Shown here piece by piece: positions 14,505-59,065 of a stretch of 64,000 nt of DNA (position 1 is the stretch's first letter; every line of letters begins with the position of its first letter). A program made the translations under genes and the position numbers. The DNA is taken from positions 17,238,823 through 17,302,822 of the forward strand of contig OX421497.1 of assembly GCA_949126835.1 (NCBI GenBank). Direction: 5' to 3'. Below the pieces are notes generated by a model. It searched no databases, was not told where the DNA came from, and worked only from the letters and a program-made list of their open reading frames with translations. Source of the stretch: Anisus vortex. Its lineage: Eukaryota > Mollusca > Gastropoda > Planorbidae.

Positions 14505-14658
14505 TCATACTTGAAAGCTATCAACAAGTCCGTTGGCTCTTAGGCACAATATGACTATGTCAAGTCTTGAGTTGGCCACAGCGTACCAGAGTGGGGATTT
14601 ATGAGCAGAGTCTAGCAAGTTGACATCGGCACCAGCTGCAATGAGATCCTGGATGCAT
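14505..14658 (-). CDS. Ankyrin gene exon 7 (last identified)
   Basis: Acceptor ATCCATCAG at 14659. Codes for CIQDLIAAGADVNLLDSAHK, SPLWYAVANSRLDIV and ILCLRANGLVDSFQ. It either stops at the TGA at 14507-14505 or splices at CAA|GTATGA (14511). It lies 15.6 kb from exon 6, across the satellite. Confidence 0.85.
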
Positions 14659-17600
14659 CTGATGGATAATTAATAGTGAAATAGGTTGGTACTAATAACT
14701 AAAAGATAGCTATGTCTAATCACATATATGTATACTATATAAAGAATATAAAGTAACAGTTTCTTTTAAGAAACCTATCTAATATAGTGAATAAGGTCTG
14801 GTCATTTGCAAATATTTGCAGCCAAAACTAGGGATGTTAAACGAAAACCGGAATACCGGATTCCGGTTTTGAATCTGAAAACCGGTTTTGATTTTTAAAA
14901 CCGGATTTCGGTTTGTTGGTTGGAAGGTAATCATTACTTCAAGTAGCAAACCCTTTTTTTTATTTATTGGTTCTGATGAAAATGTTGGATTCACGCAAAA
15001 CAATTATTGAAATGCCTTGCTAATACTATTTAGTCTTAGATATTGTGTTTCTTTTTTTTTCTCCAAATACCAACTATGGCTTGCGATAAAAACAACATCA
15101 AACCAAATGTCGGCTCATCGTTTAGATGTGCGCTACTGTTTGATGTGCCTCAAGTGCGGCAGGGATTGCCCCTCCTGGGTTGGCCTACACAGCCATTCTC
15201 GGCGGTGCAGTTGGATACCTCATCCATGAAGCCACACCATCGTCACTCGAGACGGACGGATACCGACGACAACTCTTTGATGTACGCAATGGAGAGAGCA
15301 AACTAGTTTTGTCCTGTGACCCTGAACAATTCGGCTAGACACCGCGTCTGTGCTTTATTAGTAACGGCAACATTAAATACACATTCTTTTGACTTTTGAT
15401 TGGCGCTACGTGATCCTATTCAATACATTATTTTACAAGTCTAAGTCCACGGTGCACAAATTATCACTATTGAAAGCTATTATCGGTTGTAATCAATTAG
15501 CCCATATTTTTTTTTATTTCTAAAGAATGTTCTGGTAAAGTGTACAAAATCATAATGTATTCACACAAATCAACCTCTTAAATGCTATGCAAACACTTAT
15601 TAAGTTTGAAATATTTTTCAAATACACCTACAAAGCTACGCTCATTTATCTTTTCCGGCCTGTGACTTGTGACATTGCGGGGGGGGGGGGGGGGGGGAGG
15701 GGGATAATCGAAATCCGGTTTTAAAACGGTTTTATAGAAACGAAAACCGGTTTTGAAAACAAATCGGTTTTAACATCCCTAGCCAAAACCATATCAAGCC
15801 AATGTTCTAATAAACGTACTTGTTGTATCCCATTATATGTTGAGAATAGTATTTGCTCAAATTGTTTTACCTAAGAAAAACATGTCAATATTTGTACCTA
15901 TGAGATTATTGATATTAAATATACCATAACATGATTTCTTCTTGGTATGAAACCAGGATCATGTTTGGGTCCATACTCAAGACGGAAAGGTGTCGCTGAA
16001 TCTACCTATTTCTGTCTGAATTAGGTGAAAAGCTAAAAAGGCTTGGCGTTGTGCTGGCCACACAATCCCCCTGTATGCAGTGGCCATGGAAATATGTGAA
16101 CACTGCTTCACGTGTCCCATGGATAAACCTGATCCCAAAAATATACTATAATTATTGATGGGAAGTTGGTAATGACAAACACTTTACAACAAGCCAAAAA
16201 AAAAAAATGGCACAAAGCTCATTTATAAATATTTGATATTGTATTGCTAATACTTGATTGTTTAATTTAAAATATTTGATATTGTGTTGCTAATACTTGA
16301 TTGTTTAATTTAAAATATTTGATATTGTGTTGCTAATACTTGATTGTTTAATTTAAAATATTTGATATTGTGTTGCTAATACTTGATTGTTTAATTTAAA
16401 ATATTTGATATTGTGTTGCTAATACTTGATTGTTTAATTTAAAATATTTGATATTGTGTTGCTAATACTTGATTGTTTAATTTAAAATATTTGATATTGT
16501 GTTGCTAATACTTGATTGTTTAATTTAAAATATTTGATATTGTGTTGCTAATACTTGATTGTTTAATTTAAAATATTTGATATTGTGTTGCTAATACTTG
16601 ATTGTTTAATTTAAAATATTTGATATTGTGTTGCTAATACTTGATTGTTTAATTTAAAATATTTGATATTGTGTTGCTAATACTTGATTGTTTAATTTAA
16701 AATATTTGATATTGTGTTGCTAATACTTAATTGTTTAATTTAAAATATTTGATATTGTGTTGCTAATACTTGATTGTTTAATTGAAAATATTTGATATTG
16801 TGTTGCTAATACTTGATTGTTTAATTTAAAATATTTGATATTGTGTTGCTAATACTTGATTGTTTAATTTAAAATATTTGATATTGTGTTGCTAATACTT
16901 GATTGTTTAATTTAAAATATTTGATATTGTGTTGCTAATACTTGATTGTTTAATTTAAAATATTTGATATTGTGTTGCTAATACTTGATTGTTTAATTTA
17001 AAATATTTGATATTGTGTTGCTAATACTTGATTGTTTAATTTAAAATATTTGATATTGTGTTGCCAATACTTGATAGTTTAATTTAAAATATTTGATATT
17101 GTATTGCTAATACTTGATTGTTTAATTTAAAATATTTGATATTGTGTTGCTAATACTTGATTGTTTAATTTAAAATATTTGATATTGTGTTGCTAATACT
17201 TGATTGTTTAATTTAAAATATTTGATATTGTGTTGCTAATACTTGATTGTTTAAAATTTAAAATATTTGATATTGTGTTGCTAATACTTGATTGTTTAAA
17301 ATTTAAAATATTTTATATTGTGTTGCTAATACTTGATTGTTTAAAATTTAAAATATTTGATATTGTGTTGCTAATACTTGATTGTTTAAAATTTAAAATA
17401 TTTGATATTGTGTTGCTAATACTTGATTGTTTAAAATTTAAAATATTTGATATTGTGTTGCTAATACTTGATTGTTTAAAATTTAAAATATTTGATATTG
17501 TGTTGCTAATACTTGATTGTTTAAAATTTAAAATATTTGATATTGTGTTGCTAATACTTGATTGTTTAAAATTTAAAATATTTGATATTGTGTTGCTAAT

Positions 17601-20600
17601 ACTTGATTGTTTAAAATTTAAAATATTTGATATTGTGTTGCTAATACTTGATTGTTTAATTTGAAATATATGATATTGTGTTGCTAATACTTGATTGTTA
17701 AAAATTTAAAATATTTGATATTGTGTTGCTAATACTTGATTGTTTAAAATTTAAAATATTTGATATTGTGTTGCTAATACTTGATTGTTTAATTTAAAAT
17801 ATTTGATATTGTGTTGCTAATACTTGATTGTTTAATTTAAAATATTTGATATTGTGTTGCTAATACTTGATTGTTTAATTTAAAATATTTGATATTGTGT
17901 TGCTAATACTTGATTGTTTAATTTAAAATATTTGATATTGTGTTGCTAATACTTGATTGTTTAAAATTTAAAATATTTGATATTGTGTTGCTAATACTTG
18001 ATTGTTTAAAATTTAAAATATTTGATATTGTGTTGCTAATACTTGATTGTTTAATTTAAAATATTTGATATTGTGTTGCTAATACTTGATTGTTTAATTT
18101 AAAATATTTGATATTGTGTTGCTAATACTTGATTGTTTAATTTAAAATATTTGATATTGTGTTGCTAATACTTGATTGTTTAATTTAAAATATTTGATAT
18201 TGTGTTGCTAATACTTGATTGTTTAATTTAAAATATTTGATATTGTGTTGCTAATACTTGATTGTTTAATTTAAAATATTTGATATTGTGTTGCTAATAC
18301 TTGATTGTTTAATTTAAAATATTTGATATTGTGTTGCTAATACTTGATTGTTTAATTTAAAATATTTGATATTGTGTTGCTAATACTTGATTGTTTAATT
18401 TAAAATATTTGATATTGTGTTGCTAATACTTGATTGTTTAATTTAAAATATTTGATATTGTGTTGCTAATACTTGATTGTTTAATTTAAAATATTTGATA
18501 TTGTGTTGCTAATACTTGATTGTTTAATTTAAAATATTTGATATTGTGTTGCTAATACTTGATTGTTTAATTTAAAATATTTGATATTGTGTTGCTAATA
18601 CTTGATTGTTTAATTTAAAATATTTGATATTGTGTTGCTAATACTTGATTGTTTAATTTAAAATATTTGATATTGTGTTGCTAATACTTGATTGTTTAAT
18701 TTAAAATATTTGATATTGTGTTGCTAATACTTGATTGTTTAATTTAAAATATTTGATATTGTGTTGCTAATACTTGATTGTTTAATTTAAAATATTTGAT
18801 ATTGTGTTGCTAATACTTGATTGTTTAATTTAAAATATTTGATATTGTGTTGCTAATACTTGATTGTTTAATTTAAAATATTTGATATTGTGTTGCTAAT
18901 ACTTAATTGTTTAATTTAAAATATTTGATATTGTGTTGCTAATACTTGATTGTTTAATTTAAAATATTTGATATTGTGTTGCTAATACTTAATTGTTTAA
19001 TTTAAAATATTTGATATTGTGTTGCTAATACTTGATTGTTTAATTTAAAATATTTGATATTGTGTTGCTAATACTTGATTGTTTAATTTAAAATATTTGA
19101 TATTGTGTTGCTAATACTTGATTGTTTAATTTAAAATATTTGATATTGTGTTGCTAATACTTGATTGTTTAATTTAAAATATTTGATATTGTGTTGCTAA
19201 TACTTGATTGTTTAATTTAAAATATTTGATATTGTGTTGCTAATACTTGATTGTTTAATTTAAAATATTTGATATTGTGTTGCTAATACTTGATTGTTTA
19301 ATTTAAAATATTTGATATTGTGTTGCCAATACTTGATAGTTTAATTTAAAATATTTGATATTGTATTGCTAATACTTGATTGTTTAATTTAAAATATTTG
19401 ATATTGTGTTGCTAATACTTGATTGTTTAATTTAAAATATTTGATATTGTATTGCTAATACTTGATTGTTTAATTTAAAATATTTGATATTGTGTTGCTA
19501 ATACTTGATTGTTTAAAATTTAAAATATTTGATATTGTGTTGCTAATACTTGATTGTTTAAAATTTAAAATATTTTATATTGTGTTGCTAATACTTGATT
19601 GTTTAAAATTTAAAATATTTGATATTGTGTTGCTAATACTTGATTGTTTAAAATTTAAAATATTTGATATTGTGTTGCTAATACTTGATTGTTTAAAATT
19701 TAAAATATTTGATATTGTGTTGCTAATACTTGATTGTTTAAAATTTAAAATATTTGATATTGTGTTGCTAATACTTGATTGTTTAAAATTTAAAATATTT
19801 GATATTGTGTTGCTAATACTTGATTGTTTAAAATTTAAAATATTTGATATTGTGTTGCTAATACTTGATTGTTTAATTTGAAATATATGATATTGTGTTG
19901 CTAATACTTGATTGTTAAAAATTTAAAATATTTGATATTGTGTTGCTAATACTTGATTGTTTAAAATTAAAAATATTTGATATTGTGTTGCTAATACTTG
20001 ATTGTTTAATTTAAAATATTTGATATTGTGTTGCTAATACTTGATTGTTTAATTTAAAATATTTGATATTGTGTTGCTAATACTTGATTGTTTAATTTAA
20101 AATATTTGATATTGTGTTGCTAATACTTGATTGTTTAATTTAAAATATTTGATATTGTGTTGCTAATACTTGATTGTTAAATTTAAAATATTTGATATTG
20201 TGTTGCTAATACTTGATTGTTTAATTTAAAATATTTGATATTGTGTTGCTAATACTTGATTGTTTAATTTAAAATATTTGATATTGTGTTGCTAATACTT
20301 GATTGTTTAATTTAAAATATTTGATATTGTGTTGCTAATACTTGATTGTTTAATTTAAAATATTTGATATTGTATGGCTAATACTTGATTGTTTAATTTA
20401 AAATATTTGATATTGTGTTGCTAATACTTGATTGTTTAATTTAAAATATTTGATATTGTGTTGCTAATACTTGATTGTTTAATTGAAAATATTTGATATT
20501 GTGTTGCTAATACTTAATTGTTTAATTTAAAATATTTAATATTGTGTTGCTAATACTAGATTGTTTAATTTAAAATATTTGATATTGTGTTGCTAATACT

Positions 20601-23600
20601 TGATTGTTTAATTTAAAATATTTGATATTGTGTTGCTAATACTTGATTGTTTAATTTAAAATATTTGATATTGTGTTGCTAATACTTGATTGTTTAATTT
20701 AAAATATTTGATATTGTGTTGCTAATACTTGATTGTTTAATTTAAAATATTTGATATTGTGTTGCTAATACTTGATTGTTTAATTTAAAATATTTGATAT
20801 TGTGTTGCTAATACTTGATTGTTTAATTTAAAATATTTGATATTGTATTGCTAATACTTGATTGTTTAATTTAAAATATTTGATATTGTGTTGCTAATAC
20901 TTGATTGTTTAATTTAAAATATTTGATATTGTATTGCTAATACTTGATTGTTTAATTTGAAATATTTGATATTGTGTTGCTAATACTTGATTGTTTAAAA
21001 TTTAAAATATTTGATATTGTGTTGCTAATACTTGATTGTTTAAAATTTAAAATATTTGATATTGTGTTGCTAATACTTGATTGTTTAAAATTTAAAATAT
21101 TTGATATTGTGTTGCTAATACTTGATTGTTTAAAATTTAAAATATTTGATATTGTGTTGCTAATACTTGATTGTTTAAAATTTAAAATATTTGATATTGT
21201 GTTGCTAATACTTGATTGTTTAAAATTTAAAATATTTGATATTGTGTTGCTAATACTTGATTGTTTAAAATTTAAAATATTTGATATTGTGTTGCTAATA
21301 CTTGATTGTTTAAAATTTAAAATATTTGATATTGTGTTGCTAATACTTGATTGTTTAATTTAAAATATTTGATATTGTGTTGCTAATACTTGATTGTTTA
21401 AAATTTAAAATATTTGATATTGTGTTGCTAATACTTGATTGTTTAAAATTTAAAATATTTGATATTGTGTTGCTAATACTTGATTGTTTAATTTAAAATA
21501 TTTGATATTGTGTTGCTAATACTTGATTGTTTAATTTAAAATATTTGATATTGTGTTGCTAATACTTGATTGTTTAATTTAAAATATTTGATATTGTGTT
21601 GCTAATACTTGATTGTTTAATTTAAAATATTTGATATTGTGTTGCTAATACTTGATTGTTTAATTGAAAATATTTGATATTGTGTTGCTAATACTTGATT
21701 GTTTAATTTAAAATATTTGATATTGTGTTGCTAATACTTGATTGTTTAATTTAAAATATTTGATATTGTGTTGCTAATACTTGATTGTTTAATTTAAAAT
21801 ATTTGATATTGTGTTGCTAATACTTGATTGTTTAATTTAAAATATTTGATATTGTGTTGCTAATACTTGATTGTTTAATTTAAAATATTTGATATTGTGT
21901 TGCTAATACTTGATTGTTTAATTTAAAATATTTAATATTGTGTTGCTAATACTTGATTGTTTAATTTAAAATATTTGATATTGTGTTGCTTATACTTGAT
22001 TGTTTAATTTAAAATATTTGATATTGTGTTGCTAATACTCGATTGTTTAATTTAAAATATTTGATATTGTGTTGCTAATACTTGATTGTTTAATTTAAAA
22101 TATTTGATATTGTGTTGCTAATACTTGATTGTTTAATTTAAAATATTTGATATTGTATTGCTAATACTTGATTGTTTAATTTAAAATATTTGATATTGTG
22201 TTGCTAATACTTGATTGTTTAATTTAAAATATTTGATATTGTATTGCTAATACTTGATTGTTTAATTTAAAATATTTGATATTGTGTTGCTAATACTTGA
22301 TTGTTTAATTTAAAATATTTGATATTGTGTTGCTAATACTTGATTGTTTAATTTAAAATATTTGATATTGTGTTGCTAATACTTGATTGTTTAATTTAAA
22401 ATATTTGATATTGTATTGCTAATACTTGATTGTTTAAAATTTAAAATATTTGATATTGTGTTGCTAATACTTGATTGTTTAAAATTTAAAATATTTGATA
22501 TTGTGTTGCTAATACTTGATTGTTTAATTTAAAATATTTGATATTGTGTTGCTAATACTTGATTGTTTAATTTAAAATATTTGATATTGTGTTGCTAATA
22601 CTTGATTGTTTAATTTAAAATATTTGATATTGTGTTGCTAATACTTGATTGTTTAATTTAAAATATTTGATATTGTGTTGCTAATACTTGATTGTTTAAT
22701 TTAAAATATTTGATATTGTGTTGCTAATACTTGATTGTTTAATTTAAAATATTTGATATTGTGTTGCTAATACTTGATTGTTTAATTTAAAATATTTGAT
22801 ATTGTGTTGCTAATACTTGATTGTTTAATTTAAAATATTTGATATTGTGTTGCTAATACTTGATTGTTTAATTTAAAATATTTGATATTGTGTTGCTAAT
22901 ACTTGATTGTTTAATTTAAAATATTTGATATTGTGTTGCTAATACTTGATTGTTTAATTTAAAATATTTAATATTGTGTTGCTAATACTTGATTGTTTAA
23001 TTTAAAATATTTGATATTGTGTTGCTTATACTTGATTGTTTAATTTAAAATATTTGATATTGTGTTGCTAATACTCGATTGTTTAATTTAAAATATTTGA
23101 TATTGTGTTGCTAATACTTGATTGTTTAATTTAAAATATTTGATATTGTATTGCTAATACTTGATTGTTTAATTTAAAATATTTGATATTATGTTGCTAA
23201 TACTTGATTGTTTAATTTAAAATATTTGATATTGTGTTGCTAATACTTGATTGTTTAATTTAAAATATTTGATATTGTGTTGCTAATACTTGATTGTTTA
23301 ATTTAAAATATTTAATATTGTATTGCTAATACTTAATTGTTTAATTTAAAATATTTGATATTGTGTTGCTAATACTTATTGTTTAATTTAAAATATTTGA
23401 TATTGTATTGCTAATACTTGATTGTTTAATTTAAAATATTTGATATTGTATTGCTAATACTTGATTGTTTAATTTAAAATATTTGATATTGTGTTGCTAA
23501 TACTTGATTGTTTAATTTAAAATATTTGATATTGTGTTGCTAATACTTGATTGTTTAATTTAAAATATTTGATATTGTATTGCTAATACTTGATTGTTTA

Positions 23601-26600
23601 ATTTAAAATATTTGATATTGTGTTGCTAATACTTGATTGTTTAAAATTTAAAATATTTGATATTGTATTGCTAATACTTGATTGTTTAATTTAAAATATT
23701 TGATATTGTATTGCTAATACTTGATTGTTTAATTTAAAATATTTGATATTGTATTGCTAATACTTGATTGTTTAATTTAAAATATTTGATATTGTATTGC
23801 TAATACTTGATTGTTTAAAATTTAAAATATTTGATATTGTATTGCTAATACTTGATTGTTTAATTTAAAATATTTGATATTGTGTTGCTAATACTTGATT
23901 GTTTAATTTAAAATATTTGATATTGTGTTGCTAATACTTGATTGTTTAAAATTTAAAATATTTGATATTGTGTTGCTAATACTTGAATGTTTAAAATTTA
24001 AAATATTTGATATTGTATTGCTAATACTTGATTGTTTAAAATTTAAAATATTTGATATTGTATTGCTAATACTTGATTGTTTAAAATTTAAAATATTTGA
24101 TATTGTATTGCTAATACTTGATTGTTTAATTTAAAATATTTGATATTGTATTGCTAATACTTGATTGTTTAATTTAAAATATTTGATATTGTATTGCTAA
24201 TACTTGATTGTTTAATTTAAAATATTTGATATTGTATTGCTAATACTTGATTGTTTAATTTAAAATATTTGATATTGTATTGCTAATACTTGATTGTTTA
24301 ATTTAAAATATTTGATATTGTATTGCTAATACTTGATTGTTTAATTTACAATATTTGATATTGTATTGCTAATACTTGATTGTTCAATTTACAATATTAG
24401 ATATTGTATTGCTAATACTTGATTGTTAAATTTAAAATATTTGATATTGTATTGCTAATACTTGATTGTTTAATTTAAAATATTTGATATTGTGTTGCTA
24501 ATACTTGATTGTTTAATTTAAAATATTTGATATTGTGTTGCTAATACTTGATTGTTTAATTTAAAATATTTAATATTGTATTGCTAATACTTGATTGTTT
24601 AATTTAAAATATTTGATATTGTATGGCTAATACTTGATTGTTTAATTTAAAATATTTGATATTGTGTTGCTAATACTTGATTGTTTAATTTAAAATATTT
24701 GATATTGTGTTGCTAATACTTGATTGTTTAATTGAAAATATTTGATATTGTGTTGCTAATACTTAATTGTTTAATTTAAAATATTTAATATTGTGTTGCT
24801 AATACTAGATTGTTTAATTTAAAATATTTGATATTGTGTTGCTAATACTTGATTGTTTAATTTAAAATATTTGATATTGTGTTGCTAATACTTGATTGTT
24901 TAATTTAAAATATTTGATATTGTGTTGCTAATACTTGATTGTTTAATTTAAAATATTTGATATTGTGTTGCTAATACTTGATTGTTTAATTTAAAATATT
25001 TGATATTGTGTTGCTAATACTTGATTGTTTAATTTAAAATATTTGATATTGTGTTGCTAATACTTGATTGTTTAATTTAAAATATTTGATATTGTATTGC
25101 TAATACTTGATTGTTTAATTTAAAATATTTGATATTGTGTTGCTAATACTTGATTGTTTAATTTAAAATATTTGATATTGTATTGCTAATACTTGATTGT
25201 TTAATTTGAAATATTTGATATTGTGTTGCTAATACTTGATTGTTTAAAATTTAAAATATTTGATATTGTGTTGCTAATACTTGATTGTTTAAAATTTAAA
25301 ATATTTGATATTGTGTTGCTAATACTTGATTGTTTAAAATTTAAAATATTTGATATTGTGTTGCTAATACTTGATTGTTTAAAATTTAAAATATTTGATA
25401 TTGTGTTGCTAATACTTGATTGTTTAAAATTTAAAATATTTGATATTGTGTTGCTAATACTTGATTGTTTAAAATTTAAAATATTTGATATTGTGTTGCT
25501 AATACTTGATTGTTTAAAATTTAAAATATTTGATATTGTGTTGCTAATACTTGATTGTTTAAAATTTAAAATATTTGATATTGTGTTGCTAATACTTGAT
25601 TGTTTAATTTAAAATATTTGATATTGTGTTGCTAATACTTGATTGTTTAAAATTTAAAATATTTGATATTGTGTTGCTAATACTTGATTGTTTAAAATTT
25701 AAAATATTTGATATTGTGTTGCTAATACTTGATTGTTTAATTTAAAATATTTGATATTGTGTTGCTAATACTTGATTGTTTAATTTAAAATATTTGATAT
25801 TGTGTTGCTATCACTTGATTGTTTAATTTAAAATATTTGATATTGTGTTGCTAATACTTGATTGTTTAATTTAAAATATTTGATATTGTGTTGCTAATAC
25901 TTGATTGTTTAATTTAAAATATTTGATATTGTGTTGCTAATACTTGATTGTTTAATTTAAAATATTTGATATTGTGTTGCTAATACTTGATTGTTTAATT
26001 TAAAATATTTGATATTGTGTTGCTAATACTTGATTGTTTAATTTAAAATATTTGATATTGTGTTGCTAATACTTGATTGTTTAAAATTTAAAATATTTGA
26101 TATTGTGTTGCTAATACTTGATTGTTTAATTTAAAATATTTGATATTGTGTTGCTAATACTTGATTGTTTAATTTAAAATATTTAATATTGTGTTGCTAA
26201 TACTTGATTGTTTAATTTAAAATATTTGATATTGTGTTGCTTATACTTGATTGTTTAATTTAAAATATTTGATATTGTGTTGCTAATACTCGATTGTTTA
26301 ATTTAAAATATTTGATATTGTGTTGCTAATACTTGATTGTTTAATTTAAAATATTTGATATTGTGTTGCTAATACTTGATTGTTTAATTTAAAATATTTG
26401 ATATGGTGTTGCTAATACTTGATTGTTTAATTTAAAATATTCTATATTGTGTTGCTAATACTTGATTGTTTAATTTAAAATATTTGATATTGTGTTGCTA
26501 ATACTTGATTGTTTAATTTAAAATATTTGATATTGTATTGCTAATACTTGATTGTTTAATTTAAAATATTTGATATTGTGTTGCTAATACTTGATTGTTT

Positions 26601-29600
26601 AATTTAAAATATTTGATATTGTATTGCTAATACTTGATTGTTTAATTTAAAATATTTGATATTGTGTTGCTAATACTTGATTGTTTAATTTAAAATATTT
26701 GATATTGTGTTGCTAATACTTGATTGTTTAATTTAAAATATTTGATATTGTGTTGCTAATACTTGATTGTTTAATTTAAAATATTTGATATTGTATTGCT
26801 AATACTTGATTGTTTAATTTAAAATATTTGATATTATGTTGCTAATACTTGATTGTTTAATTTAAAATATTTGATATTGTGTTGCTAATACTTGATTGTT
26901 TAATTTAAAATATTTGATATTGTGTTGCTAATACTTGATTGTTTAATTTAAAATATTTAATATTGTATTGCTAATACTTAATTGTTTAATTTAAAATATT
27001 TGATATTGTGTTGCTAATACTTATTGTTTAATTTAAAATATTTGATATTGTATTGCTAATACTTGATTGTTTAATTTAAAATATTTGATATTGTATTGCT
27101 AATACTTGATTGTTTAATTTAAAATATTTGATATTGTGTTGCTAATACTTGATTGTTTAATTTAAAATATTTGATATTGTGTTGCTAATACTTGATTGTT
27201 TAATTTAAAATATTTGATATTGTATTGCTAATACTTGATTGTTTAATTTAAAATATTTGATATTGTGTTGCTAATACTTGATTGTTTAAAATTTAAAATA
27301 TTTGATATTGTATTGCTAATACTTGATTGTTTAATTTAAAATATTTGATATTGTATTGCTAATACTTGATTGTTTAATTTAAAATATTTGATATTGTATT
27401 GCTAATACTTGATTGTTTAATTTAAAATATTTGATATTGTATTGCTAATACTTGATTGTTTAAAATTTAAAATATTTGATATTGTATTGCTAATACTTGA
27501 TTGTTTAATTTAAAATATTTGATATTGTGTTGCTAATACTTGATTGTTTAATTTAAAATATTTGATATTGTGTTGCTAATACTTGATTGTTTAAAATTTA
27601 AAATATTTGATATTGTGTTGCTAATACTTGAATGTTTAAAATTTAAAATATTTGATATTGTATTGCTAATACTTGATTGTTTAAAATTTAAAATATTTGA
27701 TATTGTATTGCTAATACTTGATTGTTTAAAATTTAAAATATTTGATATTGTATTGCTAATACTTGATTGTTTAATTTAAAATATTTGATATTGTATTGCT
27801 AATACTTGATTGTTTAATTTAAAATATTTGATATTGTATTGCTAATACTTGATTGTTTAATTTAAAATATTTGATATTGTATTGCTAATACTTGATTGTT
27901 TAATTTAAAATATTTGATATTGTATTGCTAATACTTGATTGTTTAATTTAAAATATTTGATATTGTATTGCTAATACTTGATTGTTTAATTTACAATATT
28001 TGATATTGTATTGCTAATACTTGATTGTTCAATTTACAATATTAGATATTGTATTGCTAATACTTGATTGTTAAATTTAAAATATTTGATATTGTATTGC
28101 TAATACTTGATTGTTTAATTTAAAATATTTGATATTGTGTTGCTAATACTTGATTGTTTAATTTAAAATATTTGATATTGTGTTGCTAATACTTGATTGT
28201 TTAATTTAAAATATTTAATATTGTATTGCTAATACTTGATTGTTTAATTTAAAACATTTGATATTGTATTGCTAATACTTGATTGTTTAATTTAAAATAT
28301 TTGATATTGTGTTGCTAATACTTGATTGTTTAATTTAAAACATTTGATATTGTATTGCTAATACTTGATTGTTTAATTTAAAATATTTGATATTGTGTTG
28401 CTAATACTTGATTGTTTAATTTAAAATATTTGATATTGTATTGCTAATACTTGATTGTTTAATTTAAAATATTTGATATTGTGTTGCTAATACTTAATTG
28501 TTTAATTTAAAATATTTGATATTGTATTGCTAATACTTGATTGTTTAATTTAAAATATTTGATATTGTATTGCTAATACTTGATTGTTTAATTTAAAATA
28601 TTTGATATTGTATTGCTAATACTTGATTGTTTAATTTAAAATATTTGATATTGTGTTGCTAATACTTGATTGTTTAATTTAAAATATTTGATATTGTATT
28701 GCTAATACTTGATTGTTTAATTTAAAATATTTGATATTGTATTGCTAATACTTGATTGTTTAATTTAAAATATTTGATATTGTGTTGCTAATACTTGATT
28801 GTTTAAAATTTAAAATATTTGATATTGTGTTGCTAATACTTGATTGTTTAATTTAAAATATTTGATATTGTGTTGCTAATACTTGAATGTTTAAAATTTA
28901 AAATATTTGATATTGTATTGCTAATACTTGATTGTTTAAAATTTAAAATATTTGATATTGTATTGCTAATACTTGATTGTTTAAAATTTAAAATATTTGA
29001 TATTGTATTGCTAATACTTGATTGTTTAATTTAAAATATTTGATATTGTATTGCTAATACTTGATTGTTTAATTTTAAATATTTGATATTGTGTTGCTAA
29101 TACTTGATTGTTTAAAATTTAAAATATTTGATATTGTATTGCTAATACTTGATTGTTTAATTTAAAATATTTGATATTGTAATGCTAATACTTGATTGTT
29201 TAATTTAAAACATTTGATATTGTATTGCTAATACTTGATTGTTTAATTTAAAATATTTGATATTGTGTTGCTAATACTTGATTGTTTAATTTAAAATATT
29301 TGATATTGTATTGCTAATACTTGATTGTTTAATTTAAAATATTTGATATTGTGTTGCTAATACTTGATTGTTTAATTTAAAATATTTGATATTGTGTTGC
29401 TAATACTTGATTGTTTAATTTAAAATATTTGATATTGTATTGCTAATACTTGATTGTTTAATTTAAAATATTTGATATTGTATTGCTAATATTTGATTGT
29501 TTAATTTAAAATATTTGATATTGTATTGCTAATACTTGATTGTTTAATTTAAAATATTTGATATTGTATTGCTAATACTTGATTGTTTAATTTAAAATAT

Positions 29601-31627
29601 TTGATATTGTATTGCTAATACTTGATTGTTTAATTTAAAATATTTGATATTGTATTGCTAATACTTGATTGTTTAATTTAAAATATTTGATATTGTATTG
29701 CTAATACTTGATTGTTTAATTTAAAACATTTGATATTGTATTGCTAATACTTGATTGTTTAATTTAAAATATTTGCTATTGTGTTGCTAATACTTGATTG
29801 TTTAATTTAAAATATTTGATATTGTGTTGCTAATACTTGATTGTTTAATTTAAAATATTTGATATTTTGTTGCTAATACTTGATTGTTTAATTTAAAATA
29901 TTTGATATTTTGTTGCTAATACTTGATTGTTTAATTTAAAATATTTGATATTGTGTTGCTAATACTTGATTGTTTAAAATTTAAAATATTTGATATTGTA
30001 TTGCTAATACTTGATTGTTTAATTTAAAATATTTGATATTTTGTTGCTAATACTTGATTGTTTAATTTAAAATATTTGATATTGTGTTGCTAATACTTGA
30101 TTGTTTAATTTAAAATATTTGATATTGTGTTGCTAATACTTGATTGTTTAATTTAAAATATTTAATATTTTGTTACGATTTGATACAGACAAGCAGCATA
30201 CACCTTATATATAATATCATGTATTCAAATTAACCTTTTATGACCTTTGTAGGCTAAAATATGTAATGGTGTTTTCATAGATGGCATGTTGGCAAGGTTT
30301 ACATTGATTCCTGGCACCTGGCACAGACTGTGTATGACCTTGTCCAGACCTTCTGTGGCTGCAGCAAGCAGTGAAGTGGAGCCATCTTTGTCCTGGATAT
30401 TCACATCGGCACCTGTGGAGATAAATATATAAAGAGTGTCTAAGTGTAAGTTTCTATATAGTAACTGTTCAACACTTTCACTAACAATCTCTTCGAGGCT
30501 TTGACAAATTTAATAACACTCTCCAGGAACAGTAAAATATATATATATATATATAAGTTTATTTACACACACATTTTATATCCTCACAAATTACAAGGAA
30601 ATCCATTTGAATGCTTAAGCATGTAGCAATAAGATATAATCACTTAATTACATTGCAATTTACATAATAGAATGTACAGAATAGATTCACTGAGATCTCC
30701 AATACTATCTCCATTACAAAAATCCACATAAAAAAAACTCCAGCTCATACCACCACAAAAGCTGGTTGCACACTGCCTTAGCCAAGGTCAAAATCTCTCC
30801 GGATCCTTCTCACATCCTCTCACATTTCTCAATCTCGTGAACTCACAAAAATCACTACACTATCGTCCACTCTTTGTCATATAATAACTGTCCTTTATCC
30901 TATAGTCTGTTTCTGCTATTTAAGGTCAAAGTTTACTCTTCTTTTCATTGGTTATCTCTCTTTGACCATAGACAAATTATTATGCTCTATTTCAATCACT
31001 GACACTAAATATGACATAGATTAATATATACAGAGGGTCTCAGTATGAAATAGATTAATATATACAGAGGGTCTCAGTATGAAATAGATTAATATATACA
31101 GAGGGTCTCAGTATGAAATAGATTAATATATACAGAGGGTCTCAGTATGAAATAGATTAATATATACAGAGTGTCTAAGTATGAAATTGATAAATATATA
31201 CAGAGTGTCTAAGTATGAAATTGATAAATATATACAGAGTGTCTAAGTATGAAATTGATAAATATATATATAGTGTCTAAGTATGAAATAGATAAATATT
31301 TACAAAGTGTCTAAGTATGACAAGGATTAATATATACAGAAATAATTTTATACAGAGTGTCTAAGTACGAAATAGATTAATATATACAGAGTGTCTAAGT
31401 ATGAAATAAATAAATATATACAGAGTGTCTAAGTATGAAATAGATTAATATATACAGATTGTCTAAGTATGAAATAGATTAATATATACAGAGTGTCTAA
31501 GTATGAAATAAATAAATATATACAGAGTGTCTAAGTATGAAATAGATTAATATATACAGATTGTCTAAGTATGAAATAGATACATTAATACAGAGTGTCT
31601 AAGTATGAAACAAAATAAGAAAGAAAT

Positions 31628-31673
<46 letters not shown>

Positions 31674-34600
31674 GAAAGAGAGGTAAAAGAGCAAGTAAAG
31701 ACGAAGAGATATTGCATCACAATTTCAGGGTCGTAGCTTAGGCTTAGCTAATGAATACTGAATTTCATATTTTAAAATTCATAACTTTAAAAACCAAAAT
31801 GTTATCCAATTTGTTTTAATAAATTATATATCAATGAAATCATCTCTTCAAGATATTTCTATGTCGCATACCCACTGATAATAAAAGAAATATTTATAAG
31901 AAAAACAAAAGATATATCCCCGGTGTCTAGAAGATAGTCTAGAGCAGTGGTCGGGCAACCTTTGGATTATATTGTGCTCAAGTAGGATTTCTAATTCATT
32001 TAGCATGCCAACATCCTAAAAGTCAACCTGCTAAAGCACTTAATTTTCTGTAGAAGAGACTTGTACTGTCCTTATGTCGAGTCTTCGCGTGCCATTGAAA
32101 ATCGCTCTGCGTGCCAAGTTTGGCATGCAGAGAAGTAGGTTGGCGACACCTGGTGTAGAGTCTAGAGCTACTCTAAAGCTTAGATTTTCTATCAGAGTAT
32201 CACCAACGCCAAAAATAAACATGCTTCTAATTTAACGTAGTACTTGAATATGAAGAAAGGTATGCATTCTCTGCAAACTTTCAAATACCTAGCACACAGA
32301 AATGGAAATAATTTAAACGTTGTCATGCAATTACTCTACCTGCCCTAATTAACTGCTCAACGGCAACAGCCGTTTGACTGGCGTAGTGAAGGGCTGATCT
32401 CCCTTCTAGATCAACGCAGTTGACATCACATCCGTTCTCAAGCAGGCTAGCTATTGCCCCATAGTGCTTCCCTTTTACTGCGAGAATCAGGGGCGTGGAT
32501 CCGAAGGAGTCTCTGGAGTTGAGGCAACTTCCATGGGAGAGAAGGACCTAGAGAAAACATTGGCCTTAGAGCACATTGTAGGCATACACTGCATGTTATC
32601 TAAACTCACTTCCAGACATTCACTGCATGTTATCTAAACTCACTTCCAGACATTCACTGCGTGTTATCTAAACTCACTTCTAGACATTCACTGCGTGTTA
32701 TCTAAACTCACTTCCAGACATTCACTGCGTGTTATCTAAACTCACTTCCAGACATTCACTACGTGTTATCTAAACTCACTTCCATACATTCACTGCGTGT
32801 TATCTAAACTCACTTCCAGACATTCACTGCATTATATCTAAACTGACTTCCAGACATTAACTGCATGTTATCTAAACTCATTTCCAGACATTCACTGCGT
32901 GTTATCTAAACTCACTTCCAGACATTCACTGCGTGTTATCTAAACTCACTTCCAGACATTCACTGGGTGTTATCTAAGCTCACTTCCAGATATTCACTGC
33001 GTGTTATCTAAACTCATTTCCAGACATTCACTGCGTGTTATCTAAACTCACTTCCAGACATTCACTGCGTGTTATCTAAACTCATTTCCAGACATTCACT
33101 GCGTGTTATCTAAACTCACTTCCAGACATTCACTGCGTGTTTTCTAAACTCACTTCCAGACATTCACTGCGTGTTATCTTAACTCACTTCCAGACATTCA
33201 CTGCGTGTTATGTAAGCTCACTTCCAGACATTCACCGCGTGTTATCTAAACTCACTTCCAGACATTCAATGCGTGTTATCTAAACTCTTTTCCAGACATT
33301 CACTGGGTGTTATCTAAACTCACTTCCAGACATTCACTGCGTGTTATGTAAGCTCACTTCCAGACATTCACTGCTTGTTATCTAAACTCACTTCCAGACA
33401 TTCAATGCGTGTTATATAAACTCACTTCCAGACATTCACTGGGTGTTATCTAAACTCACTTCCAGACATTCACTGCGTGTTATGTAAGCTCACTTCCAGA
33501 CCTTCACTGCGTGTTATCTAAACTCATTTCCAGACATTCAATGCGTGTTATCTAAACTCACTTCCAGACATTCATCCTGTCCCCATTTGGCTGCCAAATG
33601 GAGGGATGTATTGTTTCCACTGCCCCGGGCATCCACCTTAGCTCCGCCTCCGCACAACACTTGTGCGACCTCATGGTGACCTTCTTTAACGGCCAGATAC
33701 AAGGGTGGGTTGTTGCTTACGTCACATATGTTTGGATCAGCGCCAGCTATGAAAAGAACAATAAAGTTACAACATCAGTACTAAAAAACAAACAAAAAGT
33801 AAAAAAAATACACTGAGTGTGTTTGTGATGAAAATAAAATTGAGAATCCAGGTAATGTGGGTGGGGGCTATGTGTACAGTCAGGTGGATGCATTGTTTTT
33901 TGCAAGGGAGGAACCTTATACATCTACCACTGCAATTCACACCAAGTGCGCACTGAGCATTCTAATTTAATAGCATGGATAGAAGCGCTAAAAGATATGG
34001 CCATTCTTCTTCTTATTGTTCTTGTTCTTTGTTGGGCTTGTTCATTTTGCTGTACATTTTTCTTTCTGTTTTCTTTGTGTCCCGAGGCTTTCAGCCATAA
34101 CAATTAACCAAACAAAAATAACAAAAAAAAGAGAAGAAAATCAACAATGACTAACACCCAGGAGCGAAGCCACAAGGGAAGGGGGCTGAGGAGGGCTAAG
34201 CGCCCCCCCCCCCCCCCTGGAATTAAAAAAAAAAAATTTTCAACAGATTTTTTAACAAATAAGTACTAAATTCGCCGTAAATATTTGTCACGCGAAAGTT
34301 CAGCCCCCCCCCCCCCCCCCTGAACCTATTTCCTGGCTTTGCACCTGCCAACACCTATGATATATTATGTTATATTTAAAGGCGTTTTTCTTCTTCCTTT
34401 TCAATTGTAGTAGATTTAGAGGTTGAAACATAGACAGCCATGTCGGTAACGAAATGTATGATTTTCTAATTAAGAGTGGATTTTGTGTCAAAATAAAGCT
34501 AATGAAAAGCAAGGTACTTCAAACTATTTTCTAGCGAGGATAAAAATTGAAGTACATATTTCAATCTTCGCTGGAGACTTCTAACAAGGACAGTATTCTG

Positions 34601-37389
34601 GGATGCAAACACAACACTTCTGTAACCGAAATCCCCAAAAGCTGGTAAAGTTTGTAAACCACCGTTACGCTGCCATTAAGGGTCAATCTGTGGACGAACA
34701 CGTTGAGTAATTTCCCTCTTGTGCCTCCAAGGATCGCACGAGCCCTAAGCCCAACAAACTTCAGTGGGAAAGAAAGGAGGGCACTAAAATTCCGACTCTG
34801 CAATCCTGGAGACTGGACGACAAAGTCTATCGATATATTTTGGTATTTGCACAATGGGAACATACATACGCGAGGAGAAACCGTTAAATACTTCAAGAGG
34901 GAGATTGCGTTGGGGGGGGGGGGGGTGAAATGTGAGAGTGCCTACGGTGTCCTTACATGGCACATGCTCCATAACATAACAGGAATAAAAAGATAAGATT
35001 ATATAAACCCACCCCTTACACTATGCGCCATGGTCTTCAAAGCTGAAAAGCTCGTCCGGTAAAAGAGACTTTTTAATTCAGTGCAAACAACGTGATTCTG
35101 GTATTTGTGTTATAACCTGTAGAGTCTGAATTTTAAGTTTGACGCTGGAGACGTGGGTAAAAACACTAGGATTCCTGCTGTTAGAATTATACCTTTAACT
35201 CAATCATTGTCTTGGTTGGAATTACCATAGAAATACTCCTGCAGCCTTCGCCAGTTACTTTGATCCTGGCATAAAAAGGGCGTGGTGTGGTCAGCACAAT
35301 GCACCTAGTCACAGGTACCTAAAAGGTAAGGTTGCTTAGTTCCAGAAACACTGTGTAGATCTAGGTGAGAAAATACCTGCGTTTTATTCATCAACAAGCT
35401 GGGCTAGGCCACCCTATCACAACCAATTGCCCCCCCCCCCCCCCCCATAATAAATGTCAAAATGTCGTAGCCTTGTTCTCATGTTTTCTTTTTTTTTGCT
35501 GCTATTTTTAGAAACGATATAAATTATACAATGTAAGCGTCATTAAAAATAAAAATTAAGCAACTGTATGCTTTACGTAAACAAATCAGTTTTATTTTGA
35601 TCGTTTTTCCTTATTTTGTTTTGTAGCTTGATTAAGGTACAAAGTGCGATAACAACGAAATTATTTTTTTACATTATCACTCAACGTATTTCACGAGTTG
35701 TGTACCTTTCAATAAGCAGCGTACACAATCAGTATACCCTAGAGTGACAGCAGAGATGAGAGATCTTTCAATATCACTTGGCTGAGTTGGTCCCCTTAGT
35801 ATGATGTCTAATATTCTTATATTATTGGCTTGGATAGCTGAAAGAACACTATGTTTAAAAAAAATTACAATAAAATTAATATATATGATAAATAGGACCT
35901 ATATTTTAGAATTTACCTTTATAAAGTAGACTGTGTGTGTGTGGAACCCCCATTGGTTAATTTAAAGACACGTGACCTTATTGTCTTATATTTTACTTTT
36001 GCCATCTTACTTCCGGTAAATGTCCGCCCAAGCAGACTAGCAGAGTTGTTAACGTATCCGACTGCCATGACTGCGTCCTGGGTTCGATTCCCCGATGATA
36101 CTTTTTTTTTCTACTTTTTTTTCATTTCCATTAGTATTACCTTTTTTTAAAAAAGATTTTAAAGGATTTCAAAATTTAAAACTTTCTTAAAATGTTTTCA
36201 CTACATAAAATCTAATAATTAAATTTCAGACTATGCGGGAGACGGGTATTCAATTCTCAGCCAGGGATAGTCCAAATTGTTTGTTAAAATAAAAAGAAAT
36301 GACCATTGTTAACCCGATTACAATATTTTTTTAAAATTTCTTTTCTAAATGTTTTCAGTAAAGAATAAATAGGTTTTTTTAGATTACTATATCATTTTAT
36401 TAATAATAGTTTATACATTTTTTATATAAGGGCTATAAGGCCTATGTAATTTTTCCCCCGACAACGCCGGGGAATTTAGCTTGTAATTTATATATATATT
36501 AATAATAATCTGATAATAATCTAGGTCGGTATATACTCTAGGTAGGTTACATTTATATAGGTGTGTCTATAATATAGGAATATATTGTTTATAAAGCACT
36601 AAAATCACAAACCTCTTAATTAAACTTACTTTTGGGGTATTTTCATTTCAGCTACATTTTGAGACTCAACTAATACATTCACATTTCTTATATTTGTACT
36701 CGCTGAAAAACATACACAGCTAAATGGAAAATAGCAAAAGTTTTATTTGGCAGTTAGCTAATTAGAAATTGTTTGATACGCAAATTTTAAGGCAACTAAA
36801 TACAGAGATTCTTACAAGGTTATTTAAACTATTTTTGTACATCAATCAGAATTAAATATGTTAAATCAACAAAATACTATTAGCCTACAAAAAAACAAAA
36901 AACAATAACATATTAATATTAACCATTTCATAGTTGTAGTCTAAATGTGTTTTGTATTTTAAAATGTGAATACAAAAAATAGCCTAATGTTTGTTTTTTT
37001 ATTAGCGTAGGTCCTAAAGATCTATATTGATTAGAGTTTAGTTAAAAGAATCCCTTCGTGATTAAAATCTTACTCGTACACTGACGACAGTGTCTGTTCC
37101 AATCGACTTAAGCAGTTAAAGTAAAGTAAGACAATTCTGATGTTTACCTGACCATGATAATTGACTAAATGTAGCTCCTTTCGAATATTCAACAAGAAAT
37201 TTAACATCAATACAAAGTAGGCTGGCAGAAACAGAGTTTATAGATAAATATTGAAATATTGTGAACAAAGTTTGTACATTATGTACACATCTACATAGGG
37301 CTTACAAGACTGTGTACTTTTACACATACACTCGTGAGTAAGGGTATTTACGACTATATTTAGATTTACCTTGCTCGAGACAAGAACAT
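14505..37389 (-). CDS. Ankyrin-repeat protein gene, seven exons, 316 codons assembled
   Basis: Exons, in transcript order: 37389-37370, 37221-37148, 35837-35706, 33746-33562, 32547-32340, 30412-30235, 14658-14505. Every intron has GT-AG borders, codon phases match at all six joins, and the total (951 bases) divides by three, ending at a TGA. The product is a tandem ankyrin solenoid: GADPN at residues 77-81, NTSLHLAAKWG near 121-131, STPLILAVKG near 154-163, RSALHYA near 187-193, GADVN at 207-211, TPLHILAYKG near 254-263 and GADVN at 275-279. I see no signal peptide, membrane segment or other domain, so a soluble protein-binding scaffold is the family expectation; partner and pathway are unknown. 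The start is the ATG in exon 1, six codons before the first donor; a TATATATT-like stretch lies about 90 bases upstream. The 3' end is less certain: the last sense codons overlap CAA|GTATGA, a usable donor, and no AATAAA lies close by, so further exons are possible. Introns range from 148 to 15,576 bases. Confidence 0.85.
14829..15781. mobile_element. Non-autonomous hAT, 953 bp, perfect 8-bp target duplication
   Basis: Both ends read TAGGGATGTTAAA in inverted orientation, followed by repeated CCGGTTTT motifs. The octamer GCCAAAAC flanks it exactly at 14821-14828 and 15782-15789. It sits in the last intron of the ankyrin gene. The interior contains a LINE-derived coding scrap and a run of 19 G at about 15679-15697 rather than a transposase. 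Confidence 0.9.
15075..15306 (+). pseudogene. LINE C-terminal zinc-finger fragment inside the hAT
   Basis: The plus strand codes for YCLMCLKCGRDCPSWVGLHS followed by HSRRCS. This is a Cys-x2-Cys-x12-His-x4-Cys knuckle that, from memory, is common at the C terminus of animal non-LTR retrotransposon polymerases. A stop shortly afterwards and frame changes show it is a relic. It may have been captured by the flanking hAT or have inserted into it. Confidence 0.5.
15960..16160 (+). mobile_element. Possible LINE 3' tail fragment
   Basis: The stretch with AAGGTGTCGCTGAATCTACC and GGCTTGGCGTTGTGCTGGCC resembles 3' ends of mollusc LINEs as I remember them. There is no coding content, so the assignment is tentative. 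Confidence 0.3.
16229..30175. repeat. 13.95-kb satellite of 43/45-bp units in the last ankyrin intron
   Basis: About 320 copies of TTTGATATTGTGTTGCTAAT-ACTTGATTGTTTAATTTAAAATA (43 bp), mixed with a 45-bp form that carries TTAAAATTTAAAATA. Runs of the 45-bp form have a 15-residue period and create several short periodic open frames. Units with GTGTTGC dominate on the left and GTATTGC units become common on the right. Rare shared variants reveal large internal duplications (see findings). The AT-rich units are flanked by unrelated DNA on both sides. Confidence 0.98.
30235..30412 (-). CDS. Ankyrin gene exon 6
   Basis: 178 bases, acceptor TATCTCCACAG, donor AAAAG|GTTAAT. Codes for ADVNIQDKDGSTSLLAAATE and TPLHILAYKGHK. 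Its donor is about 60 bases from the edge of the 14-kb satellite. The phase-2 end joins exon 7 to restore an Arg codon and the sequence GHKRCIQDLIAAG. Confidence 0.92.
30538..30556. repeat. (TA)n microsatellite
   Basis: Short alternating TA run in the intron between exons 5 and 6. Confidence 0.9.
31015..31611. repeat. 34-bp minisatellite in intron 5
   Basis: About 17 copies of a 34-bp unit of the form TATACAGAGTGTCTAAGTAT then GAAATAGATTAATA. A single related copy (GATAAATATATAAAGAGTGT then CTAAGTG) sits immediately next to the exon 6 acceptor at about 30419-30447, suggesting that intron edge as the source. Confidence 0.93.
31626..31682. repeat. (GA)n microsatellite
   Basis: Nearly pure GAGAGA tract. 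Confidence 0.92.
31945..32152. mobile_element. Miniature hAT of the GGTCGGCAA family, 208 bp
   Basis: The left end CAGTGGTCGGGCAACC and the reverse complement of the right end CAGGTGTCGCCAACC are inverted repeats. The flanks GTCTAGAG and GTGTAGAG agree at 7 of 8 positions. Interior GCATGCCAACATCCTAAAAG and CGCGTGCCATTGAAAAT match the 10421-11680 element. Confidence 0.82.
32340..32547 (-). CDS. Ankyrin gene exon 5
   Basis: 208 bases, acceptor TTTTCTCTAG, donor CAG|GTAGAG. Codes for VLLSHGSCLN, STPLILAVKGKHYGAIASLL, NGCDVNCVD and RSALHYASQTAVAVEQLIRA, two ankyrin repeats. It ends in phase 1 and joins exon 6 to give RAGADVN. Confidence 0.93.
32579..33574. repeat. 34-bp minisatellite built from the exon 4 splice donor
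   Basis: About 29 copies of CATTCACTGCGTGTTATCTA followed by AACTCACTTCCAGA. On the transcribed strand each unit reads GAATGTCTGGAA|GTGAGTTT, which is the last 12 bases of exon 4 plus its donor. The array begins at exon 4 itself and runs almost to the exon 5 acceptor, filling the intron. Confidence 0.95.
33562..33746 (-). CDS. Ankyrin gene exon 4
   Basis: 185 bases, acceptor TTTTCATAG, donor GAA|GTGAGT. Codes for PLYLAVKEGHHEVAQVLC and SLHLAAKWGQDECLE, two ankyrin repeats. Its last 13 bases and the donor are the seed of the 34-bp array that fills the following intron. Confidence 0.92.
34159..34347. mobile_element. Miniature hAT, 189 bp
   Basis: The left end CAGGAGCGAAGCCACAAGG and the reverse complement of the right end CAGGTGCAAAGCCAGGAAAT are inverted repeats. 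The flanks CTAACACC (34151-34158) and CCAACACC (34348-34355) agree at 7 of 8. It carries two runs of C. Confidence 0.75.
34560..35705. other. Intron 3 remainder, no element recognised
   Basis: Both strands have open frames of about 100 codons near 34561-34996, but they resemble nothing I know and overlap antisense to each other. A C-run lies near 35431-35447. This is intronic with respect to the ankyrin gene. Confidence 0.4.
35706..35837 (-). CDS. Ankyrin gene exon 3
   Basis: 132 bases, acceptor TTCTTTCAG, donor AAG|GTACAC. Codes for IQANNIRILDIILRG and LISAVTLGYTDCVRCLLK, and the codon completed by exon 4 makes the classic LLKAGADPN ankyrin junction. A second possible acceptor lies at 35849-35850. 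Confidence 0.88.
36025..36484 (+). mobile_element. tRNA-derived SINE, copy 2
   Basis: The head has TAGCAGAGTTGTTAACG (A-box-like) and GGTTCGATTCCCC (B-box-like) near 36085-36095, then an A/T-rich body. The tail at about 36455-36484 is CCCCGACAACGCCGGGGAAT followed by TTAGCTTGT. This mirrors copy 1 at 6223-6583 in opposite orientation. It lies in an ankyrin-gene intron. Confidence 0.7.
36630..36702 (-). CDS. Candidate alternative exon of the ankyrin gene
   Basis: 73 bases with a strong acceptor (TTTTTCAG) and strong donor (AAAA|GTAAGT), open in the frame that continues exon 2 (coding for STNIRNVNVLVESQNVAEMK then IPQ). It ends in phase 2, which does not fit the exon 3 acceptor at 35837, but does fit an AG 11 bases upstream (exon 3 starting at 35848). 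The added length, 73 + 11 = 84, keeps frame. It could be a cassette exon tied to an alternative 3' splice site, or chance. Confidence 0.4.
37148..37221 (-). CDS. Ankyrin gene exon 2
   Basis: 74 bases between acceptor TTCTGCCAG and donor CAG|GTAAAC. It codes for residues 8-31, including LCIDVKFLVEYSKGATFSQ, a divergent half-repeat. It ends in phase 1, matching exon 3. Confidence 0.72.
37370..37389 (-). CDS. Ankyrin gene exon 1 (start codon)
   Basis: Encodes MFLSRA plus two bases of a Ser codon, followed by the donor AAG|GTAAAT. The phase fits exon 2, which supplies the third base. An in-frame TAG lies upstream of the ATG, which supports this start. It is the least secure exon because it is so short. 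Confidence 0.6.
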
Positions 37390-58981: not shown

Positions 58982-59065
58982 ACTAAATTATTCTTTACGT
59001 TTGTTGCTGTAGCCTAGATTATTTTGTTACTTATACAACTTGAGATAAAATTCAACTTGTTGTTT

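What the first reader, a model, noticed from the sequence alone, without database searches (positions are those of the whole stretch)
32548..33574. An intron made of about 29 copies of its own splice donor
The 34-bp unit of this array, read on the transcribed strand, is the end of ankyrin exon 4 plus its 5' splice site (GAATGTCTGGAA|GTGAGTTT), and the real donor is the first copy. The intron therefore presents up to about 29 near-identical consensus donors in a row. Most would add exonic-looking sequence with a new phase: 34 is not a multiple of 3, so use of a wrong donor shifts frame by one base per unit. This is either a splicing hazard that must be suppressed or a length-variable source of isoforms.
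Basis: partly seen in the sequence, partly recalled or inferred. Interest (0 to 1): 0.82.

Follow-up and report, generated by a model that had tools for sequence, protein, structure and literature searches.

The report
Snail intron of repeated splice donors
In a snail gene for an ankyrin/SOCS-box protein, the junction where an exon ends has been copied about 29 times in a row, so almost the whole next intron consists of near-identical splice start signals; similar arrays sit at a few other genes of the same genome, and a human gene with this layout has been reported.

Summary
On the minus strand, 29 units of 34 bp (33573-32588) each hold the last 12 nt of an ankyrin exon plus its 5' splice site; they fill 974 of the intron's 1014 nt. 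24 of 29 copies keep GT, 23 GTGAG, 19 GTGAGT. The gene is an ankyrin-SOCS box gene without a close paralog (about 80% identical to Bulinus and Biomphalaria proteins); 9 of 9 related proteins aligned run straight across the junction. Best reading: a minisatellite seeded by a tandem duplication across the exon edge, recently amplified next to the exon, tolerated because copy 1 is used or mis-spliced RNA is removed. Donor use is inferred; no RNA was available. The class recurs: of 16 flanks of other donor-bearing arrays, 3 have a family-supported coding exon ending at the array (PDZ, TRPM-like, NEMO/ABIN-like); 2 more have long open frames without homologs. Closest precedent: the human IFI6 minisatellite.

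The parts
33562..33746 (-). ankyrin exon (exon 3 in my numbering), phase-0 end ..DECLE|
   Evidence: tblastn of P0001-P0003; borders; 9 of 9 related proteins aligned are contiguous across this point
32548..33561 (-). array intron, 1014 nt, GTGAGT..CTCTAG
32588..33573 (-). 29 units of 34 bp, each 12 nt exon end + 22 nt intron start; copy 1 holds the exon's own donor
33166..33573 (-). copies 1-12 form a 4-unit (136 bp) higher-order repeat: mean identity 0.96 at lag 4 and 0.95 at lag 8, 0.90-0.92 at lags 1-3 and 5-7
32548..32587 (-). the only non-array intron sequence, 40 nt: polypyrimidine tract and acceptor TTTTCTCTAG, candidate branch CTCTAAG (guess); no significant match to the unit
   Evidence: 1118 of 2000 shuffles reach the score
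32340..32547 (-). next ankyrin exon, starting VLLSHG..
35706..35848 (-). upstream coding exon (exon 2)
30235..30412 (-). exon 5
14511..14658 (-). exon 6; exons 7 and 8 (SOCS box) lie beyond the window start, tblastn matches in L009 8296-8120 and 4614-4444, borders not worked out

Best explanation
A tandem duplication with one end in the exon (12-13 nt before the junction) and the other about 22 nt into the intron copied the 5' splice site; slippage or unequal exchange then grew it to 29 units, so the intron is now donor array plus a 40-nt acceptor end (inferred from anatomy). It was amplified recently next to the exon (shown: a 4-unit higher-order repeat that takes in copy 1). The array is most likely a neutral passenger: copy 1 is a full-strength donor with the exon's own context, and use of any later copy gives the same early stop, several exon junctions before the end, which nonsense-mediated decay should remove (stop shown; use and decay inferred). 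Copy number would set how many decoys compete, but need not change the protein made.
For: Array and register. No insertion at the junction in 9 of 9 related proteins, and the residues encoded by the unit are partly conserved (the Cys in 10 of 10 rows), so the exon is the likely source of the unit. The 5 coding exons in the window join into one open frame of 864 nt, two further exons match without stops, with ankyrin and SOCS box domains. 28 of 28 downstream positions give the same stop. Higher-order repeat: lag-4 identity of copies 1-12 reached by 1 of 5000 shuffles, as the best of all lags by 17 of 5000; for the first 10, 11 or 13 copies 14, 35 and 131 of 5000. Recurrence: of 16 flanks of other arrays with repeated AGGTAAGT units, the first copy is the end of a family-supported coding exon in 3 (L032 PDZ, L043 NEMO/ABIN-like, L044 TRPM-like). 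No sign that decoy GTs are being silenced over the 5 arrays I class as exon-anchored: GT changed 13 of 250, other positions 209 of 4001. Arrays are frequent: 34 in a 200-kb sample, so some should hit donors by chance.
Against: No RNA: use of copy 1 is unproven. In the window alone GT columns change more than the rest (6 of 58 against 31 of 928, p = 0.018), which fits selection against decoys, or chance with spread by homogenisation. Work on duplicated 5' splice sites (recalled, not read) often favours the site nearer the acceptor, which would make mis-splicing common. The duplication step rests on anatomy only; no relative without the array could be read.
Confidence: 0.68

Rival explanations
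1. Splicing rheostat: decoy donors compete for U1, a fraction of transcripts takes the stop, and array length tunes the amount of productive mRNA.
For: GTGAG is kept in 23 of 29 copies and every position leads to the same stop; the array next to the exon was amplified recently.
Against: No RNA and no length polymorphism data; no consistent conservation of GT in the arrays classed as exon-anchored. One of them, L054, does keep GT in 114 of 114 cells against 116 changes in 1653 elsewhere, but its exon (L045) has no homolog support.
Confidence: 0.12
2. Mis-splicing hazard under active suppression: selection removes decoys by mutating their GT.
For: Window GT columns 6 of 58 changed against 31 of 928; L052 shows the same direction, 7 of 46 against 42 of 828.
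Against: Pooled over the 5 arrays classed as exon-anchored there is no excess (13 of 250 against 209 of 4001, p = 1); L054, L053 and L032 have no GT change; 17 of 29 window copies are still identical to copy 1 over 18 nt. All but the window array were found by their intact donors, which biases against GT changes.
Confidence: 0.1
3. One reading: different donors give proteins of different length or frame.
For: Many strong donors in a row. In L043 the first downstream donor would add 14 codons in frame, so the idea may hold elsewhere.
Against: In the window 28 of 28 alternatives give one and the same stop.
Confidence: 0.03
4. The repeat is an unrelated satellite that landed at the exon edge, or an assembly artefact.
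For: The genome is rich in arrays (7% of a 200-kb sample; 47.7% of the window).
Against: The unit carries 12 nt of this gene's own exon; all 13 matches reported for a two-unit query in the genome lie in this array (a search that skips very common words and scores only the best candidates); unit variants and higher-order structure argue against an invented repeat.
Confidence: 0.05

Closest known systems
Human IFI6 (6-16/G1P3) minisatellite with multiple splice donor sites (Turri, Cuin and Porter 1995, Nucleic Acids Res 23:1854; not held, not read; title seen in four reference lists)
   Same: A minisatellite whose repeat units act as splice donors; PMC4526556 (passage) says two downstream repeat units serve as donor sites, giving three mRNA species.
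   Different: Here the unit is 34 bp and carries a stop in the exon's frame, so alternatives give one truncated product; 29 copies fill the intron; use in RNA unknown. Details of the IFI6 unit beyond title and passage are recalled only.
Intron gain by tandem duplication across an exon-intron border (potato RdRp, PMC4974935, abstract read)
   Same: A duplication that crosses an exon-intron border and copies splice signals.
   Different: There one duplication makes a new intron; here repeated amplification of the donor end within one intron.
Variable internal tandem repeats at exon-intron boundaries in human segmental duplications (PMC2812944, passages)
   Same: Minisatellites with units of about 30 bp on average that alter exon-intron structure.
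   Different: Not described, in the passages seen, as an array of one donor.

Membership tests
Donor-bearing minisatellite at an exon-intron junction (IFI6 type) | Tandem array includes the gene's own 5' splice site | tested here: met
   Copy 1 is the exon end and donor; 9 of 9 related proteins aligned are contiguous there
Donor-bearing minisatellite at an exon-intron junction (IFI6 type) | Downstream units keep donor consensus | tested here: met
   24 of 29 copies GT, 23 of 29 GTGAG, copy 1 included
Donor-bearing minisatellite at an exon-intron junction (IFI6 type) | Downstream units are used as donors in transcripts | not testable with these tools
   No RNA data held
Donor-bearing minisatellite at an exon-intron junction (IFI6 type) | Copy number varies between individuals | not testable with these tools
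   One assembly; only the internal higher-order repeat speaks for turnover
Intron gain by tandem duplication | The intron is new at this position | not testable with these tools
   No gene structure of a relative could be read; protein alignment only
Poison-exon / NMD-coupled alternative donor | Alternative use brings a stop well upstream of the last junction | tested here: met
   28 of 28 alternatives stop in unit 1; five further exons follow
Poison-exon / NMD-coupled alternative donor | The unproductive isoform is made and regulated | not testable with these tools
   No RNA data held

The most novel reading that the evidence does not exclude
Donor-anchored minisatellites are a standing class in this snail genome: fast-mutating arrays of a gene's own 5' splice site whose copy number sets the share of transcripts that take the stop, giving heritable, length-variable expression levels at many genes.
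Probability: 0.1. Interest if true: 0.78.

Novelty: new member of a known kind. Interest (0 to 1): 0.5.

Why it matters
It is an extreme natural test of how the splicing machinery picks one donor among some twenty near-identical ones that share one acceptor. The same genome holds at least three further cases with other units and copy numbers, so rules of donor choice, decay and tolerance of repeats could be read from RNA of one species.

Tried and rejected
Paralogous intron as an empty-site comparison: none seen; after the gene's own two exons the next 15 listed matches in the genome are 31-39% identical (best candidates only). Orthologous nucleotide sequence: among the collections offered I knew of none with mollusc genomes besides G000, and I did not search them. 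The 40-nt 3' end as a degenerate 30th copy: score reached by 1118 of 2000 shuffles, rejected. Lower variation in the exon-like part (5 of 348 against 32 of 638, p = 0.004): units are not independent and the variation sits in few columns, so I do not rest on it. Donor-like arrays as enriched over chance: GTAAGT triples 91,098 against 59,943 for the backwards control, but AGGTAAGT triples 1977 against 3565; no general enrichment claimed. Base rate of AGGTAAGT in the 200-kb sample: 4, permuted mean 5.9, too few to say what share are true donors. Flanks not counted as exons: L045 (65 open codons; no Pfam, PDB or homolog match; the homolog search admits only proteins of similar length, so full-length relatives could not appear), L039 (90 open codons, of which the last 70, partly a CA repeat, were searched; no Pfam or PDB match), L037 (no Pfam match), L034, L036 and L047 (31-39 open codons; only matches at E about 0.06 far below cut-off, or none). 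L042: possible micro-exon, not tested. L038: only 36 nt of flank, uninformative.

Full report
What is there. TRF reports a 34-bp array of 29.2 copies at 32583-33574. On the minus strand it divides into 29 units in register from 33573 to 32588, each GAATGTCTGGAA followed by GTGAGTTTAGATAACACGCAGT or a variant. Of 29 copies 24 have GT at the donor position, 23 GTGAG and 19 GTGAGT; 17 are identical to copy 1 over the 18 nt from -12 to +6.

The gene. A protein search with joined exon translations found relatives in molluscs: Bulinus truncatus and Biomphalaria at 80% identity, Physella 67%, Arion 64%. Searching proteins P0001-P0003 against the window, and P0001 and P0003 against L009-L011, places exon 2 at 35848-35706, exon 3 at 33746-33562, exon 4 at 32547-32340, exon 5 at 30412-30235, exon 6 at 14658-14511, and two further exons beyond the window start. 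Exons 2-6 join in phase into one open frame; the last two match without stops, borders not worked out. Pfam finds ankyrin repeats and a SOCS box. The numbering assumes one short upstream exon with the start codon, which I did not find. In 9 of 9 related proteins aligned, the sequence runs without insertion across the point that corresponds to ..DECLE|VLL.., which places the exon end at copy 1. A search of the genome gave the gene's own two exons first and then matches of 31-39% identity in the next 15 rows, so no close paralog was seen (only the best candidates are scored). The genome has 863 Mb in 159 contigs, of which the 18 contigs I sampled are 30-87 Mb long; with the protein matches this suggests a planorbid-like snail, which is inference.

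The intron. It is 1014 nt; 974 nt are array and the last 40 nt hold the polypyrimidine tract and acceptor. The 5 donors of this gene in the window score 4.2, 8.3, 6.2, 2.9 and 4.1 on a donor matrix that I recalled; the array donor is the best. From copy 29 to the exon is 62 nt and from copy 28 is 96 nt. PMC3223203 (abstract and passages) suggests, from a survey of mutated introns, a need of 50 nt between donor and branch site; if the branch is at CTCTAAG (my guess) copy 29 would be too close and copy 28 not.

What wrong donors would do. I joined exon 3 ending at each of the 29 copies to exon 4 onward. Copy 1 gives an open frame; 28 of 28 others stop at the same codon, after ..ECLEVSLDNTH, because a TGA closes the first unit in the exon's frame. 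Five of these 28 lack GT. The stop lies before the junctions of exons 4-8, which by the usual rule would expose the RNA to nonsense-mediated decay (established knowledge, not tested).

How it arose and moves. The exon-like 12 nt encode residues that are partly conserved in relatives, so the exon is the likely source. Copies 1-12 show a higher-order repeat of 4 units: mean identity is 0.96 at lag 4 and 0.95 at lag 8, against 0.90-0.92 at lags 1-3 and 5-7; 1 of 5000 shuffles reaches the lag-4 value and 17 of 5000 reach it at any lag; taking the first 10, 11 or 13 copies instead, 14, 35 and 131 of 5000 do. The junction of exon 3 thus lies within the part of the array that looks most recently amplified. 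The donor does not vary less than the rest: the window's GT columns changed in 6 of 58 cells against 31 of 928 elsewhere (p = 0.018), units not being independent.

Is it unusual here? In a sample of 20 stretches of 10 kb, 34 arrays cover 7% of the bases; the window itself is 47.7% array in 18 arrays. With one array per 5.9 kb and a 34-nt target per donor, some 0.6% of donors would be hit if arrays seeded anywhere; this is hand arithmetic, and selection would lower it. To look for others I searched the genome for three AGGTAAGT in a row at 20-48 nt spacing: 1977 matches, against 3565 for the backwards control. The listing runs in coordinate order through C1 and ends with one place on C2; I take it as complete for C1, which the tool does not state. 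I fetched flanks of the 16 array places in it, 15 on C1 and 1 on C2 (the first three had been picked), and looked for open frames ending at the first donor. In 3 of 16 a coding exon with family support ends there: L032, PDZ domain (Pfam PF00595, above its cut-off; best PDB match Rho GTPase activating protein 21); L043, NEMO CC2-LZ (E = 1.5e-6, below the curated cut-off; weak PDB matches to TNFAIP3-interacting proteins and NEMO); L044, SLOG in TRPM (E = 1.4e-4, below the curated cut-off; no PDB match). L045 has a 65-codon and L039 a 90-codon open frame, both without a match. The other 11 showed no exon that I could support; L038 has only 36 nt of flank and L042 was not tested further. In L032, L043, L044 and L045 the unit again joins exon (or open-frame) end to intron start. 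Reading through: L032, L044 and L045 stop within 15 nt of the first donor; in L043 the first downstream donor, 42 nt on, would add 14 codons in frame before any stop; in L044 a GTGAG lies 6 nt after the donor, before the stop.

Test for silencing of decoys. In 12 of the 17 arrays (window plus 16; 5 classed as exon-anchored, counting L054, whose exon L045 is not supported by homology; 7 others) I compared changes in GT with changes elsewhere. Exon-anchored: 13 of 250 against 209 of 4001; others: 2 of 143 against 51 of 2260; no excess in either (p = 1 and 0.77). The arrays of L036, L038, L040, L041 and L047 were left out, L055 was covered in part, and in L033 the unit taken holds two donors of which one was counted as GT. 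Single arrays differ: window and L052 high, L054 0 of 114 against 116 of 1653. All but the window were found by having three intact donors in a row, which biases against GT changes.

Known work. [quoted passage not shown] the paper is not held and I know it from its title in four reference lists and one sentence in PMC4526556. Library searches for further cases (listings capped in 36, 39 and 86) listed no other array of donors that I recognised from titles and abstract starts; that is a statement about these searches only. Tandem duplication across exon-intron borders is a known route of intron change (PMC4974935 abstract; PMC2812944 passages).

Verdict. New, as far as these searches show, are this member, its size, and the sign that donor-anchored arrays recur in this genome.

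Noticed in passing
59065-60199, + strand: A second, unrelated array carries 24 strong donor-like sites (TTGGTRAGTGA) on the + strand; I recognised no exon at its upstream edge by eye.
   Followed up: partly
30174 and 14433 (minus strand): Two other introns of the same gene have arrays starting 60 nt and 77 nt after their donors; with the array intron that is 3 of the 5 donors in the window within 80 nt of an array edge. With 18 arrays in 64 kb about 0.02 per donor would be expected (hand arithmetic); seen after the fact.
   Followed up: partly
16221-30174: A 14-kb array of a 43-bp unit (321.6 copies, 97% matches, about 18% GC) fills most of intron 5.
   Followed up: no
32588-33573, + strand: Read on the other strand each unit looks like an acceptor (CTCACTTCCAG|A) with a branch-like CTAAAC before it (sequence).
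   Followed up: no
L043/L052 (G000:C1 about 72.08 Mb): Many units of this exon-anchored array hold both an acceptor-like ATTTTAG and a donor, so each looks like a micro-exon of about 20 nt.
   Followed up: partly
G000:C1: The listed arrays with repeated AGGTAAGT lie at 0.8-14.9 Mb and 72-85.7 Mb of an 86.6 Mb contig, none listed between, as if concentrated towards the ends.
   Followed up: no
L054 (G000:C1 about 85.17 Mb): 57 copies of a 31-bp unit keep GT in 114 of 114 cells while other positions differ in 116 of 1653.
   Followed up: no
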